Assembly (NCBI GenBank): GCA_944320985.1
Contig: CALUJN010000050.1
Coordinates: 1 to 38,448 of the forward strand
Direction: 5' to 3'
DNA: 38,448 nt
Source: an uncultured Alistipes sp.
GTDB taxonomy: Bacteria > Bacteroidota > Bacteroidia > Bacteroidales > Rikenellaceae
Positions within the stretch are counted from its first letter, which is position 1. The number at the start of each line of letters is the position of its first letter. The notes under the pieces are model-generated. The model saw nothing but the letters and a program-made list of their open reading frames with translations. It was not told the origin of the DNA and searched no databases. This document shows positions 17,371-26,204 of this stretch, in pieces. The translations under genes and the position numbers were made by a program.

Positions 17371-17435
17371 GGTACAATTCCTAAATTATATTCATTTACG
17401 ATGCATCCCCCGTGACATCGGGTACAGTTCTTTTG

Positions 17436-17465
17436 CAAAGATACGGATCTTTTACGAAAGACAAA
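17436..17465 (-). promoter_or_regulatory. Complete Bacteroidota promoter for sppA
   Basis: On the minus strand, TTTG (17465-17462) is followed after 18 bases by TATCTTTG (17443-17436). This fits the -33/-7 pattern of Bacteroidota sigma-ABfr promoters. The leader to the sppA ATG is about 60 bases. Confidence 0.75.
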
Positions 17466-17528
17466 TAAAATTTATCGTTTTTCGATAAAATATATAGTTA
17501 TCCTATATCTAATCGTAAAAATATACGT

Positions 17529-17536
17529 TATCTTTG
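17529..17536 (+). promoter_or_regulatory. -7 element for the Mrp gene
   Basis: TATCTTTG lies 23 bases before the ATG at 17560. The surrounding 17460-17530 segment is very AT-rich. No clear -33 TTTG is seen at the expected distance. Confidence 0.6.
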
Positions 17537-17559
17537 CAAAAAAGTAACGCTTTGCGACC

Positions 17560-18612
17560 ATGGAAGAAAAAATAAAACAACTGCTCGCTTCGGTCATCCA
17601 TCCCGAAACAGGCAAGGATATCGTCTCGAGCGGATTCATCGAACACCTGGCCACGGCCGAGGGCAAAGTGACCGTCGTGCTGCGCTTTACCAAGACACGC
17701 GATCCCTTCGCCGTGAAGATCAAGAACCAGGTAGAACATCTTCTGCAGGAGGCTTTTCCGGGAGCTGAAATCCTCGTTGTCATCAAGGAGGGTGGGGCGG
17801 CACCCCGTCCGGAACCCAAACTCTCGACCACAACGGGCGGCATCGCCAAGGTGATTGCCGTGGCTTCAGGAAAGGGCGGGGTAGGGAAGTCGACCGTCAC
17901 GGCCAACCTGGCCATCGCCCTGCGTAACATGGGATTCCGTGTGGGTGTGCTCGATGCCGATATCTACGGACCTTCGCAACCCAAGATGTTCGGGGTAGAG
18001 GGGTACATGCCTGAAGCGATCGTGGAAAAGGGCGCCGAACACATTGTTCCGGCCGAATCGATGGATATCCGCCTCATGTCGATCGGTTTCTTCATCAAAC
18101 CCACCGACGCACTGCTGTGGCGCGGAGCCATGGCCGTGAGCGCCCTGAAACAGATGATTCACCAGACGCAATGGGGAACATTGGACTTCCTGCTGGCGGA
18201 TCTGCCCCCCGGAACGGGTGACGTGCATCTGTCGATCATCGGTGAATTGAAGATCGATGCCGCAGTGATTGTCTCCACGCCGCAGCAGGTCGCCGTAGCC
18301 GACGTGGTACGGGGTGTGGAGATGTTCCGCAATGAAAATGTGAACATTCCCGTAGCAGGCATCATCGAGAACATGGCGTGGTTTACTCCGGCGGAGTTGC
18401 CGCAGAACCGCTACTACCTCTTCGGACGGGGCGGAGCGCGTGCCTATGCCGAAAAGAACGGCGTGGATTTTCTCGGCGAAATACCGATCGTTCAATCGAT
18501 TATGGAGGGTTCGGAAGAGGGTCGTCCTGCCACGGCCACTCATCCCGAAGTCGAGGAACGTTACCGGTCGATTGCGGAGAAGATTGTCAGCAAAGTGATG
18601 AAAAACGGTTGA
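17560..18612 (+). CDS. Mrp/NBP35 (ApbC-like) P-loop ATPase without cysteines
   Basis: A 350-aa member of the Mrp/NBP35 family, normally an Fe-S cluster carrier. Residues 1-75 form a MIP18/DUF59 domain. Residues 95-345 form the ATPase with the deviant Walker A SGKGGVGKST (103-112), VLDADIYGPSQPKMFG (switch I) and LADLPPGTGDVHLS (switch II). In canonical Mrp, a CxxC follows the 'ENM' motif and ligates the bridging cluster. Here that stretch reads ENMAWFTPAELPQ, and I find no cysteine anywhere in the protein. Fe-S transfer by the usual ligands is therefore unlikely. The stop codon is the left border of the putative origin spacer. Confidence 0.93.
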   Translation: MEEKIKQLLASVIHPETGKDIVSSGFIEHLATAEGKVTVVLRFTKTRDPFAVKIKNQVEHLLQEAFPGAEILVVIKEGGAAPRPEPKLSTTTGGIAKVIAVASGKGGVGKSTVTANLAIALRNMGFRVGVLDADIYGPSQPKMFGVEGYMPEAIVEKGAEHIVPAESMDIRLMSIGFFIKPTDALLWRGAMAVSALKQMIHQTQWGTLDFLLADLPPGTGDVHLSIIGELKIDAAVIVSTPQQVAVADVVRGVEMFRNENVNIPVAGIIENMAWFTPAELPQNRYYLFGRGGARAYAEKNGVDFLGEIPIVQSIMEGSEEGRPATATHPEVEERYRSIAEKIVSKVMKNG

Positions 18613-19008
18613 CAAGTTGTCGACAACCCGTTCAACAACGGATGAAAAATAAAGATAAATCCCAGGTCGAAAAACTTGCTTTTCGAAAATCAAGCCGGGT
18701 ATATACGGAAAATCTCCGAAAACAAATTTTTTTATGAAAAGTTGTGCCGCCCGCAATCCGGCCGAAAAGGGAATCCGATGTTGAAAAAATGAGGCTGTTG
18801 AAGTGTGGAAAAACGTTATAAACAATTGTTGATTACTTTTACTTGCCTCTGTTTTTCAAAAATTTAAAAGGAAAAATAAATAAGAAAAAGAAAGAAAAGT
18901 GTTGATAGAAAACTAACAGCAGAAGTTGTGAACAGTATCAACACCCTTTTTAATTCTTCTTCTTTTCTATTTAATTATTTATTTAAAAGGAATAAAAATA
19001 AAAAAGCG
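18613..19008. other. Candidate replication origin (oriC-like AT-rich spacer)
   Basis: A gene-free spacer of 396 bases, AT-rich against GC-rich surroundings. Near its left end is a 12-bp perfect palindrome, GTTGTCGACAAC (18616-18627). Between 18779 and 18943 are 9-mers close to the DnaA box TTATNCACA. One-mismatch matches are TTTTCCACA (minus, 18804-18812) and TTATAAACA (18816-18824). Two-mismatch matches are at 18779, 18827, 18900, 18927 and 18935, several sharing TGTTGA. Purine-rich A tracts (18852-18899) and T/A-rich DNA (18947-19006) could serve as unwinding elements. G/C bias of the + strand changes around this spacer. It also contains the nadA leader, so some elements may be promoter sequence. 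Confidence 0.6.
18779..18943. repeat. Cluster of DnaA-box-like 9-mers
   Basis: Candidate boxes: 18779-18787 (-), 18804-18812 (-), 18816-18824 (+), 18827-18835 (-), 18900-18908 (-), 18927-18935 (-) and 18935-18943 (+). The two best have a single mismatch to TTATNCACA. The cluster density is the argument, since individual boxes are weak. Confidence 0.5.
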
Positions 19009-22821: not shown

Positions 22822-24864
22822 ATGGCCAAAGAGTTCAAACGTTATCTCGTTACGTCCGCACTCCCCTATGCCAACGGTCCTGTTCATATCGGACACCTGG
22901 CGGGAGTCTACATACCGTCGGATATTTATACCCGTTATTTGCGGCTGAAGGGCTGCGATGTCATTTCGGTCTGCGGTTCCGATGAGCACGGCGTGCCCAT
23001 TACCATCAAGGCCCGCAAGGAGGGCGTCTCCCCTCAGCAGATCGTCGACCGCTATCATGAACTGATCAAACGTTCGTTCGAACGGCTGGGCATGTCGTTC
23101 GATATCTATTCGCGCACCTCGTCGAAAACCCATGCCGAGACCGCTTCGGCCTTTTTCCGCAAACTTTATGACGAGGGCAAGTTCATCGAGAAGACCTCGA
23201 TGCAGTATTATGACGAAGAGGCCCAGACCTTTCTTGCCGACCGTTATATCATCGGGACCTGCCCGAAATGCGGCAACGACCGTGCTTATGGCGATCAGTG
23301 CGAAAAATGCGGTTCGACGCTCTCGCCCGACGAGTTGATCGATCCCCACAGCGCCGTGTCGGGTTCCGTGCCCGTAAAGCGCGAAACGAAGCATTGGTAT
23401 CTGCCTTTGGATCAATACGAGGAATTCCTCCGCCGATGGATTCTCGATGGACACAGGGAGTGGAAATCGAACGTATACGGGCAGTGCAAGAGCTGGCTCG
23501 ACGGCGGGTTGCAGCCGCGTGCCGTAAGTCGTGATCTGGATTGGGGCATTCCCGTTCCGGTCGAAGGGGCCGAGGGCAAGGTGCTCTATGTATGGTTCGA
23601 TGCACCGATTGGCTATATATCTGCTACCAAGGACCTTACGACCGACTGGGAGAAATATTGGAAATCGGAGGATACGAAGATGGTCCACTTTATTGGCAAG
23701 GACAACATCGTCTTCCACTGCATTGTCTTCCCTTCGATGTTGAAGGCTCACGGCGGGTATATCCTTCCGGAAAATGTTCCGGCCAACGAATTCCTGAACC
23801 TCGAGGGAGATAAGATCTCCACGTCGCGCAACTGGGCCGTCTGGCTGCACGAATACCTCGACGAATTCCCCGGCAAGGAGGATGTGCTGCGTTACGTGCT
23901 CTGTGCCAATGCCCCCGAAACCAAGGACAACGACTTCACCTGGAAGGATTTCCAGGCGCGCAACAACAACGAACTCGTCGCCATCCTCGGCAATTTCGTC
24001 AATCGGGCGCTGGTGTTGACCAAAAAATATTTCGATGGCAAGGTTCCGGCCTGCGGCGAGTTGAACGATTACGACCGTCAGACAATCGCTGAAGTGGCTT
24101 CGGTCAAGGCTTCGCTCGAGTCCAACATCGAAAACTATCGTTTCCGTGAGGCCTTGAAGGATGCCATGAATATCGCCCGTATCGGCAACAAGTATCTGGC
24201 CGATACCGAACCCTGGAAGGTCGTCAAGAGCGATCTCGAGCGGGTGAAGACCATTCTCTATGTTGCTCTTCAGATTACGGCCAATACGGCTATTGCCATC
24301 GAACCCTTCATGCCCTTCTCTTCGGCGAAGATCCTTAGGATGCTTGCCGTCGAGAAGTTCGGTTGGGAGCGTCTCGGAGCTACGGATCTGATCCCTGCCG
24401 GACACGAGATCGGAGAGCCGGAGTTATTGTTTGAAAAGATCGAAGATGATGTGATCCAGCGTCAGTTGGACAAACTCGCAGCCACAAAAGCTGCCAATAT
24501 GGCCGCTGAAGCTGCTCAACATGTTGAACCTCAGAAGGATACGGTTCAGTTCGACGATTTTCAGAAGATGGATATCCGCGTTTCGACCATTCTGGCGGCC
24601 GAAAAGGTGGCAAAAACCAAGAAATTGTTGAAATTGACGGTCGATACGGGAATCGACAAGCGGGAAATTGTCTCGGGTATTGCCGAGCACTTCACGCCCG
24701 AAGAGTTGGTCGGCAAGCAGGTACTCGTGTTGGTCAATCTCGCTCCGCGTGAACTGAAGGGAATTCTCTCCAAAGGAATGATTCTGATGGCTGAGGATGC
24801 CTCCGGAAAATTGTGTTTGCTGCAGCCCGGCGATGCGACCAACAATGGAGCCATTGTCGGATAA
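22822..24864 (+). CDS. metG: Methionyl-tRNA synthetase with C-terminal tRNA-binding domain
   Basis: A 680-aa class I aminoacyl-tRNA synthetase. The HIGH motif is at 22-25 ([14 protein letters not shown]), the KMSKS loop reads KISTS ([10 protein letters not shown]), and a zinc knuckle [18 protein letters not shown] lies at about 147-164. The anticodon-binding helical domain follows from about 390. Residues from about 570 to the end form a Trbp111/EMAP-type OB-fold ([17 protein letters not shown], ending with KGMILMAED), as in the dimeric MetG1 type. Its own promoter is at 22785. The aminotransferase gene starts 55 bases downstream. Confidence 0.97.
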
Positions 24865-24919
24865 GCCCGGGATTTTTCGATTTATTTTGGATTGTCAAAA
24901 CACTAAAAACTCAAAGAAT

Positions 24920-25933
24920 ATGGAAAATACGGATTGGAGTGCGCTCGGTTTCGACTATTGCAAGACGGATTACAACGTTCGTTTCTCCTATACGGACGGC
25001 AAGTGGAGCGAGATGATCGTAACGCAGGACGAGTATATTCAGATGCACATGTCGGCATCGTGTCTGCATTACGGTGTTGAGCTTTTCGAAGGTTTGAAGG
25101 CTTTCCGCGGAGCGGATGGCAAGGTGCGTCTTTTCCGTGTCGAGGAGAATGCCCGTCGCATGCAGTCGTCGGCAAAGCGGCTTTGTCTGCCGGTTCCCTC
25201 GGAGGAGATGATCGTTAAAGCCTGCATCGAGGTCGTCAAGCTCAACGAACGTTTCATTCCGCCTTATGGTACGGGTGCGTCGCTGTATCTGCGTCCGGTG
25301 ATGTTCGGTACGACAGCCGGACTGGGTGTAAAACCCGCCAAGGATGCGTTGTTGATTGTCTACTGCTCGCCGGTCGGAGCCTATTTCAAAACGGGTATCA
25401 AACCCATCCGTGTTGCCATCGATCGTGAACAGGACCGTGCTGCTCCACGTGGAACAGGTGACGTGAAGGTCGGAGGGAACTATGCGGCCAGTCTGCTTTC
25501 CGGTGAAAAAGGACATGAACTCGGCTATTCAAACATTATGTATCTGGACGCTGCCGAGCATAAGTATATCGAAGAGTGCGGTGCTGCCAACTTCTTCGGC
25601 ATTAAGGATGGTAAATACATTACGCCGAAATCGCAATCCGTGCTGCCTTCGATCACGAACAAGAGCCTCCGTCAATTGGCCCGCGACATGGGGCTTGAGG
25701 TCGAGGAGCGTCATATTCCGGTTGAGGAGTTGCCGACCTTCGAGGAGTGCGGTGCTTGCGGAACGGCTGCCGTGATCTCCCCTATCGGTTACATTTACGA
25801 CATGCAGACCGGTGAATCGTATAATTATGGCGATGAAGTAGGCAAGGTTTCTATGGAGTTGTACACCCGTTTGCAGGATATTCAGTACGGTCGTGCCGAA
25901 GATAAATACGGCTGGTGTACGATTGTTCTCTGA
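24920..25933 (+). CDS. ilvE: Branched-chain amino acid aminotransferase
   Basis: A 337-aa class IV PLP aminotransferase catalysing the last step of Leu, Ile and Val synthesis or the first of their breakdown. The start at 24920 (MENTDWSALGFDY) gives the family N-terminus. The frame opens earlier, but that DNA is the metG 3' end. Signatures are HYGVELFEGLKAFRG, YLRPVMFGT, the PLP-lysine segment GDVKVGGNYAAS and EECGACGTAAVISPIG. Codons just upstream of the PLP lysine (AAPRGT) contain a parS-like palindrome (25441-25456). Two hairpins follow the stop codon. Confidence 0.95.
   Translation: MENTDWSALGFDYCKTDYNVRFSYTDGKWSEMIVTQDEYIQMHMSASCLHYGVELFEGLKAFRGADGKVRLFRVEENARRMQSSAKRLCLPVPSEEMIVKACIEVVKLNERFIPPYGTGASLYLRPVMFGTTAGLGVKPAKDALLIVYCSPVGAYFKTGIKPIRVAIDREQDRAAPRGTGDVKVGGNYAASLLSGEKGHELGYSNIMYLDAAEHKYIEECGAANFFGIKDGKYITPKSQSVLPSITNKSLRQLARDMGLEVEERHIPVEELPTFEECGACGTAAVISPIGYIYDMQTGESYNYGDEVGKVSMELYTRLQDIQYGRAEDKYGWCTIVL
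25441..25456. other. parS-like site inside the aminotransferase gene (15/16)
   Basis: TGCTCCACGTGGAACA differs by one base from the perfect palindrome found twice 0.6-0.75 kb downstream. It lies within codons for A-P-R-G-T. Chromosomal ParB sites embedded in genes are known in other bacteria. Confidence 0.75.
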
Positions 25934-25985: not shown

Positions 25986-26008
25986 CGGGAAATTTTAAAA
26001 TAGTATCT

Positions 26009-26045
26009 AATAAAAAGGATCAACGATTAGTTGATCCTTTTTATT
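26009..26045. terminator. Bidirectional terminator, aminotransferase / mnmG
   Basis: Perfect 16-bp arms (26009-26024 and 26030-26045) with a GATTA loop. A runs and T runs flank the core GGATCAAC. It lies between convergent genes and 7 bases before the first intergenic parS site. Confidence 0.92.
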
Positions 26046-26052
26046 ATTGTAT

Positions 26053-26068
26053 TGTTCCACGTGGAACA
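26053..26068. other. parS site (perfect 16-bp palindrome)
   Basis: TGTTCCACGTGGAACA is a perfect palindrome and matches the widely conserved chromosomal parS sequence bound by ParB. It is one of two intergenic copies between the aminotransferase gene and mnmG. Confidence 0.88.
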
Positions 26069-26169
26069 TTGTGTGGAGTCTGTGAGAATTATTTCTGTAT
26101 AGATATTTCTTAGTGGTTTTTATTCGGATGTATTTTATAAATTTTACCTTTTAAAGATATCCGGGAGTG

Positions 26170-26185
26170 TGTTCCACGTGGAACA
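26170..26185. other. parS site (perfect 16-bp palindrome, second copy)
   Basis: The same TGTTCCACGTGGAACA, here extended to an 18-bp palindrome by flanking G and C (26169-26186). It lies 117 bases from the first copy and 20 bases from the mnmG stop. The AT-rich DNA between the copies shows no gene. Confidence 0.88.
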
Positions 26186-26204
26186 CTTGTGTATCTCTTG
26201 CCTC

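What the first reader, a model, noticed from the sequence alone, without database searches (positions are those of the whole stretch)
26053..26185. Two perfect parS palindromes in the aminotransferase/mnmG spacer
Seen: TGTTCCACGTGGAACA occurs twice, 117 bp apart, in a 271-bp gene-free spacer between convergent genes. Known: this 16-mer is the ParB-binding parS sequence conserved across many bacterial phyla, usually clustered near oriC. Inferred: this is a centromere-like ParB loading region for the chromosome, about 7 kb from the proposed origin.
Basis: partly seen in the sequence, partly recalled or inferred. Interest (0 to 1): 0.75.

Follow-up and report, generated by a model that had tools for sequence, protein, structure and literature searches.

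The report
Chromosome centromere (parS) beside mnmG
The two palindromes, and a third hidden inside the next gene, are almost certainly this gut bacterium's chromosome centromere, the landing sites for its segregation protein ParB near the replication origin; most sampled relatives across the phylum keep such a site beside the same gene, mnmG.

Summary
Observation confirmed. TGTTCCACGTGGAACA lies at 26053-26068 and 26170-26185 and nowhere else in the 2.66-Mb draft genome. A third site with one mismatch (25441-25456) lies inside ilvE. The genome has one ParB match, beside a ParA gene, on another contig. The local GC-skew minimum falls in the mrp gene, 8.3 kb from site 1; likewise in two single-contig relatives, 7.6 and 8.6 kb from their sites. 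The parS reading is supported.

ParB binding is untested. Known kind; the mnmG link and codon-embedded site are noteworthy.

The parts
26053..26068 (.). parS site 1, perfect palindrome TGTTCCACGTGGAACA, in the ilvE/mnmG spacer
   Evidence: sites in this spacer recur in relatives, number and spacing varying
26170..26185 (.). parS site 2, perfect palindrome, about 20 bp beyond the mnmG stop codon
25441..25456 (.). parS site 3, TGCTCCACGTGGAACA (1 mismatch), inside ilvE; written by codons GCT GCT CCA CGT GGA ACA (Ala-Ala-Pro-Arg-Gly-Thr)
   Evidence: the six codons rank 1-6 of 72 in synonymous conservation
24797..25933 (+). ilvE, branched-chain amino-acid aminotransferase, host gene of site 3
   Evidence: PRK13357, 442 bits
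26205..28205 (-). mnmG (gidA), the gene beside which most sampled sites lie
   Evidence: TIGR00136, 835 bits
26008..26046 (.). bidirectional terminator-like hairpin between the convergent genes, beside site 1; not part of parS
   Evidence: 17-nt perfect inverted repeat
17371..18927 (.). candidate origin region: mrp/apbC gene (17560-18612) with its two spacers; cumulative skew minimum at 17712. Which spacer holds oriC is open: mrp/nadA (18613-18927) is AT-rich and has the one DnaA-box-like word here (18804)

Best explanation
It is the ori-proximal parS (centromere) cluster of an Alistipes-type chromosome: three ParB loading sites within 745 bp, two in the ilvE/mnmG spacer and one written into ilvE codons. 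Most likely way of working (from known ParABS biology, partly recalled; only the DNA and gene content are shown here): the genome's ParB, a CTP-dependent clamp, binds the palindromes as a dimer, loads, slides out and forms a partition complex about 8 kb from the origin. ParA, encoded beside parB, then moves the newly copied origins apart. Because no canonical SMC was found, the complex probably works through ParA, or recruits a condensin not yet recognised.
For: Shown: unique, clustered perfect palindromes. One ParB match in the own genome; the ORF has N-terminal and HTH domains (PF02195, PF17762), aligns over residues 4-227 with the solved ParB 6t1f_A at E 1.7e-51 including the GERR and ENxQR boxes, and lies next to a ParA-type ATPase gene. 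Conservation: 116 of 120 family genomes have a site with up to 1 mismatch, 71 of 71 good-quality ones; 72 of 72 sites in 32 same-genus genomes lie within 1.5 kb downstream of mnmG, while spacing varies. Origin: single-base skew minimum inside mrp in the window, G087 and G008, 7.6-8.6 kb from the nearest exact site; G008 also shows the chromosome-wide minus-to-plus switch there. Codon freezing in ilvE.
Against: No binding or segregation experiment. The genome is a 90-contig, 87% complete draft, so parB's distance to parS and the missing part are unknown. In G087 and G013 the sampled chromosome-wide skew is patchy, so only the local switch supports the origin. DnaA-box support in the window is weak: one word near mrp. 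4 of 120 family genomes show no site; none of the four is among the 71 good-quality genomes. parB is not beside parS, unlike the usual layout.
Confidence: 0.94

Rival explanations
1. The palindromes are transcription-terminator hairpins for the convergent genes.
For: They lie between convergent genes, and the scan flags 26169-26186 as terminator-like.
Against: A separate 17-bp bidirectional terminator-like hairpin already sits at 26008-26046. The word recurs with one mismatch inside the ilvE coding sequence, and in other Bacteroidota exact or near-exact forms lie upstream of, inside or at the start of mnmG.
Confidence: 0.02
2. They are operators of a transcription factor or of a Noc-like ParB relative that regulates mnmG or ilvE.
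For: ParB affects promoters near some parS sites in Pseudomonas (search listing only: title of PMC5521831). The genome's ParB has a Noc-like lysine at one of four specificity positions (positions recalled; alignment). In some other Bacteroidota genomes a site lies just before the mnmG start.
Against: Sites lie at 3' ends, 5' ends or inside genes, and in the window downstream of both convergent genes. The own genome has one ParB match, and it scores 222.7 bits against a Noc cut-off of 315.
Confidence: 0.04
3. The ilvE copy is a by-product of protein conservation or codon bias, not a ParB site.
For: It lies in a conserved aminotransferase motif (A-P-R-G-T-G) and has one mismatch to the perfect palindrome. 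Two relatives that keep the Arg have lost the word (L009, L027).
Against: The synonymous third bases are frozen: the six codons rank 1-6 of 72 degenerate columns; CCA, GGA and ACA are used there in 27, 28 and 26 of 31 genes but in 4.5%, 10.3% and 13.2% of such codons elsewhere in the same genes.
Confidence: 0.05

Closest known systems
Chromosomal parS of Pseudomonas aeruginosa (parS2/parS3)
   Same: Identical 16-mer TGTTCCACGTGGAACA; four sites cluster under 16 kb from the origin and any one of them suffices for segregation (PMC4368675, passages read).
   Different: In P. aeruginosa parAB is about 7 kb from oriC; here parB is on another contig, and in 12 relatives checked the best parB match is 0.3 Mb or more from mnmG.
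parS clusters used to place ori in gut bacteria, including two Bacteroidetes (PMC10197239)
   Same: parS cluster plus GC skew marks ori; ori does not always coincide with dnaA; no known condensin found in the two Bacteroidetes (passages read).
   Different: It holds no mention of gidA (one search count) or Alistipes (one search count), and no paper in the library holds both 'parS sites' and 'mnmG'.
Bacillus subtilis parS inside the parB gene
   Same: A parS inside a coding sequence (parS-359 in parB; PMC4442127, one passage read).
   Different: Here the host gene is ilvE, unrelated to segregation, and the site shows up as frozen synonymous codons across relatives.
[quoted passage not shown]
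   Same: gidA is mnmG; it is one of the genes said to lie often near origins (PMC2099444, passages read).
   Different: In the 12 Bacteroidota genomes checked the cluster is broken up: parB lies 0.3 Mb or more from mnmG in 12 of 12, dnaA 0.4 Mb or more in 9 of 12.

Membership tests
chromosomal parS (ParABS centromere) | 16-bp palindrome matching TGTTNCACGTGNAACA (consensus recalled; related forms in PMC7022226 table, passages) | tested here: met
   Two perfect copies and one with 1 mismatch
chromosomal parS (ParABS centromere) | Few copies, clustered rather than scattered | tested here: met
   All 3 sites found within 745 bp of a 2.66-Mb draft; 72 of 72 at the mnmG locus in 32 same-genus genomes
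chromosomal parS (ParABS centromere) | Close to the replication origin | tested here: met
   7.6-8.6 kb from the skew minimum in mrp in the window, G087 and G008. Origin inferred from skew, not measured; chromosome-wide skew patchy in G087 and G013
chromosomal parS (ParABS centromere) | Genome encodes a chromosomal-type ParB, with ParA | tested here: met
chromosomal parS (ParABS centromere) | par operon near parS and oriC (usual, not obligatory) | tested here: not met
   ParB on contig C90, window is C50. Best ParB match on the same contig as mnmG but 0.48 Mb or more away in 11 of 12 relatives and about 0.30 Mb in G121 (G122 counted across the record start, its length known only rounded)
chromosomal parS (ParABS centromere) | Specific ParB binding and a role in segregation | not testable with these tools
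   needs gel shift, ChIP-seq and mutants
SMC-loading parS | Genome encodes Smc | tested here: not met
   SMC_prok_B over the cut-off in 2 of 9 genomes (G122, G124); not in G000, G087, G101, G008, G013, G148, nor in G149, which has two large partial matches. MukB and MksB not tested; own genome 87% complete

The most novel reading that the evidence does not exclude
Across Bacteroidota the chromosome's centromere is tied to the ends of mnmG rather than to parB or dnaA: the ancestral origin cluster broke up but parS stayed with mnmG, so mnmG plus parS marks the origin better than dnaA. In Alistipes-type genomes selection also holds a parS inside the ilvE reading frame through synonymous codons, and the centromere works without a canonical SMC condensin.
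Probability: 0.6. Interest if true: 0.6.

Novelty: new member of a known kind. Interest (0 to 1): 0.42.

Why it matters
Chromosome segregation in Bacteroidota, a dominant gut phylum, seems little studied (few papers in my searches). A fixed mnmG-parS address would help to find origins in draft genomes (growth-rate and replication estimates), give a place to tag the origin for imaging, and allow a test of what ParB does where no SMC is found. The codon-frozen site suggests that a centromere word can constrain an unrelated metabolic gene.

Tried and rejected
Terminator reading: rejected because a separate hairpin exists and the word occurs inside coding sequence and 5' of mnmG. Noc or regulator reading: thought unlikely. 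DnaA boxes as proof of oriC: of seven regions scanned, 10 boxes within 500 bp were seen in G124 (about 20.5 kb from parS) and 3 in the mrp/nadA spacer of G087; the window has one near mrp (18804), G008 has scattered single boxes near mrp, and nothing stood out at the expected place in G013, G149 or G148, so skew is the main evidence. Exact place of oriC: skew minima fall inside mrp, so either of its spacers may be meant. ParB coevolution in G046, whose four sites share one variant: the HTH differs little from the others, no clear answer. Chromosome-wide skew in G087 and G013 is patchy and does not by itself locate the origin. Literature: the searches showed no paper on parS tied to mnmG/gidA in Bacteroidetes, but lists were capped (20 of 40, 20 of 65 and 15 of 143 papers shown) and only passages of some papers were read; 'parS sites' with 'mnmG' gave 0 papers. 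Livny et al. 2007, a survey of parS cited in PMC10197239, is not held, so a statement there cannot be excluded.

Limits of the counts: one search kept the best 80 of 584 mnmG relatives, so speaks for the nearer ones. The ilvE set comes largely from loci fetched by the parS pattern and may hold near-identical species; one sequence (L029, short) was dropped. In loci fetched by mnmG alone, 10 have ilvE: 6 keep all six codons, 1 (L040) differs in the last base, 2 (Leu for Arg) have lost the word, and in 1 (L037) my motif search found nothing. One search gave loci for 30 of 31 genomes. In one search, 9 of 80 loci lack a site within 200 bp; 4 of these (L043, L044, L048, L050) have under 300 bp of downstream sequence. 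parA was not searched in relatives, only parB.

Full report
What was checked. The window is contig C50 of a draft genome of 2,658,254 bases in 90 contigs. Its named nearest relatives by mnmG are Alistipes and Rikenellaceae records, the closest an uncultured Alistipes at 88% identity. The 16-mer occurs exactly at 26053-26068 and 26170-26185; with up to 3 mismatches the window has one more site, 25441-25456, against a shuffle mean of 0.04. Genome-wide there are no further exact copies, and up to 2 mismatches adds only this third site; the reversed-pattern control is 0.

The partner proteins. The own genome has one match to the ParB family model (186 bits, cut-off 58). The ORF (290 aa) has ParB_N and HTH_ParB domains, follows a ParA-type ATPase gene, and aligns with solved ParB/Spo0J proteins, best 6t1f_A at E 1.7e-51, including the GERR and ENxQR boxes. 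The residue positions said to set ParB versus Noc specificity are recalled from memory: by that alignment two of four look ParB-like, one Noc-like, one neither. ParB binding to the 16-mer is inferred, not shown.

Place relative to the origin. In the window the cumulative GC skew has its minimum at 17712, inside mrp/apbC (17560-18612), 8.3 kb from site 1. In the single-contig same-genus genome G087 the minimum of the 60 kb read (1,153,807) is also inside mrp, 7.6 kb from the exact site at 1,161,377; in G008, another genus, it is at 1,838,149, again in mrp, 8.6 kb from the sites at 1,829,502 and 1,829,549. Across 20 sampled stretches G008 is negative from 0.3 to 1.84 Mb, but for one stretch at 1.1 Mb, and positive elsewhere. 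In G013 the local minimum is 7.3 kb from a one-mismatch site just upstream of mnmG and 9.3 kb from the nearest exact one. Sampled skew also switches near mnmG in G124, G149 and G148. Against: G087 and G013 have patchy skew chromosome-wide, G124 has a positive stretch before its switch and no clear local minimum in the 60 kb read, and DnaA-box clusters at the expected place are absent or weak in most; three boxes lie in the mrp/nadA spacer of G087, and ten within 500 bp about 20.5 kb from parS in G124. The origin is supported by skew, not proven, and its exact spacer is open.

Link to mnmG. In a family sample 116 of 120 genomes have a site with up to 1 mismatch, including 71 of 71 good-quality genomes. 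In the 32 same-genus genomes (own included) all 72 sites lie 6-1491 bp downstream of the mnmG match. Loci fetched only by mnmG similarity (the best 80 of 584) carry a site with up to 1 mismatch within 200 bp after the mnmG end in 17 of 22 Alistipes/Rikenellaceae and 54 of 58 other Bacteroidota loci; first-order Markov sequences of the same composition gave 0, 1, 0, 0 and 0 sites in 1.42 Mb. In a phylum-wide sample of 31 genomes (own included) 27 have an exact TGTTNCACGTGNAACA; 44 of 52 such sites, and at least one site in 24 of the 27 genomes, lie within 2 kb of mnmG, upstream, downstream or inside. Exceptions: G144 and G132 (exact sites on another contig; G144 does have one-mismatch sites by mnmG, G132 none), G149 (exact sites 7-13 kb away, a one-mismatch site at 0.3 kb), and four genomes without an exact site, of which G148 and G138 have a one-mismatch site by mnmG and G121 and G120 none. 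The gene downstream of mnmG changes: ilvE is within 6 kb in only 10 of 68 loci with enough sequence, yet the site mostly stays. In 12 genomes (10 of one contig) the best ParB match lies 0.48 Mb or more from mnmG in 11 and about 0.30 Mb in G121; G087 and G049 have a second, larger ParB-domain protein, also far away. DnaA is 15 kb from mnmG in G121, 26 kb in G149, near it in G122 only if the record is circular (its length is given rounded), and 0.4 Mb or more away in the other 9. So the link holds for most of what was sampled, not for all.

The site inside ilvE. The third site is written by codons GCT GCT CCA CGT GGA ACA (Ala-Ala-Pro-Arg-Gly-Thr). In 31 ilvE genes of the window and its relatives, among 72 conserved columns of Ala, Pro, Gly, Thr, Val or Arg, these six codons are exactly the six with the lowest synonymous variation; 24 of 31 genes are identical over all 18 bases; CCA, GGA and ACA are rare elsewhere in the same genes (4.5%, 10.3%, 13.2%). 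Six given columns filling the first six ranks of 72 has a chance of about 6e-9 if columns were exchangeable (my arithmetic; neighbouring columns are not fully independent). Changing the second GCT to GTT would perfect the palindrome but turn Ala into Val, so this is the best parS the protein allows (from the genetic code). The word is absent where the Arg is Leu or Lys (L041, L087, L021, L022) and in two genes that keep Arg (L009, L027). In loci fetched by mnmG alone, 6 of 10 ilvE genes keep all six codons and a seventh differs in one base.

Mechanism. Known (PMC4368675, passages): in P. aeruginosa the same 16-mer near oriC is bound by ParB, and one ori-proximal site suffices for segregation. 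I infer the same here. A canonical Smc, the usual partner loaded at parS, passed its cut-off in 2 of 9 genomes tested, and in none of the five Rikenellaceae-type ones (G000, G087, G101, G008, G013); PMC10197239 (passages) reports no known condensin in two other Bacteroidetes. So ParA-driven movement is the likely main role, with an unrecognised condensin as alternative; MukB and MksB were not tested.

Novelty. What I did not find in print (searches in an open-access library, lists capped; Livny 2007 not held) is the tie of parS to mnmG across Bacteroidota and the codon-frozen site in ilvE.

Noticed in passing
L144:619-663 (genome G133): In another Bacteroidota genome the parS word overlaps the mnmG start codon and is translated as the protein's first residues (MFHVKHSYDVIVVGG); in several others a site lies some ten bases before the apparent mnmG start.
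   Followed up: partly
L027 (genome G046), G046:C11:40344-40667: The four sites of this relative carry the same variant TGTTCCACGGGGAACA in mostly different flanks, while its ParB HTH is nearly unchanged.
   Followed up: partly
G000, G087, G101, G008, G013, G148: No SMC_prok_B match over the curated cut-off, unlike G122 and G124.
   Followed up: partly
window 17371-18927: mrp/apbC with its two spacers holds the skew minimum, as in G087 and G008: candidate origin region.
   Followed up: partly
G143, G129, G123, G131, G133 (L142, L143, L136, L119, L144): mnmG is bracketed by a parS-like site at each end.
   Followed up: partly
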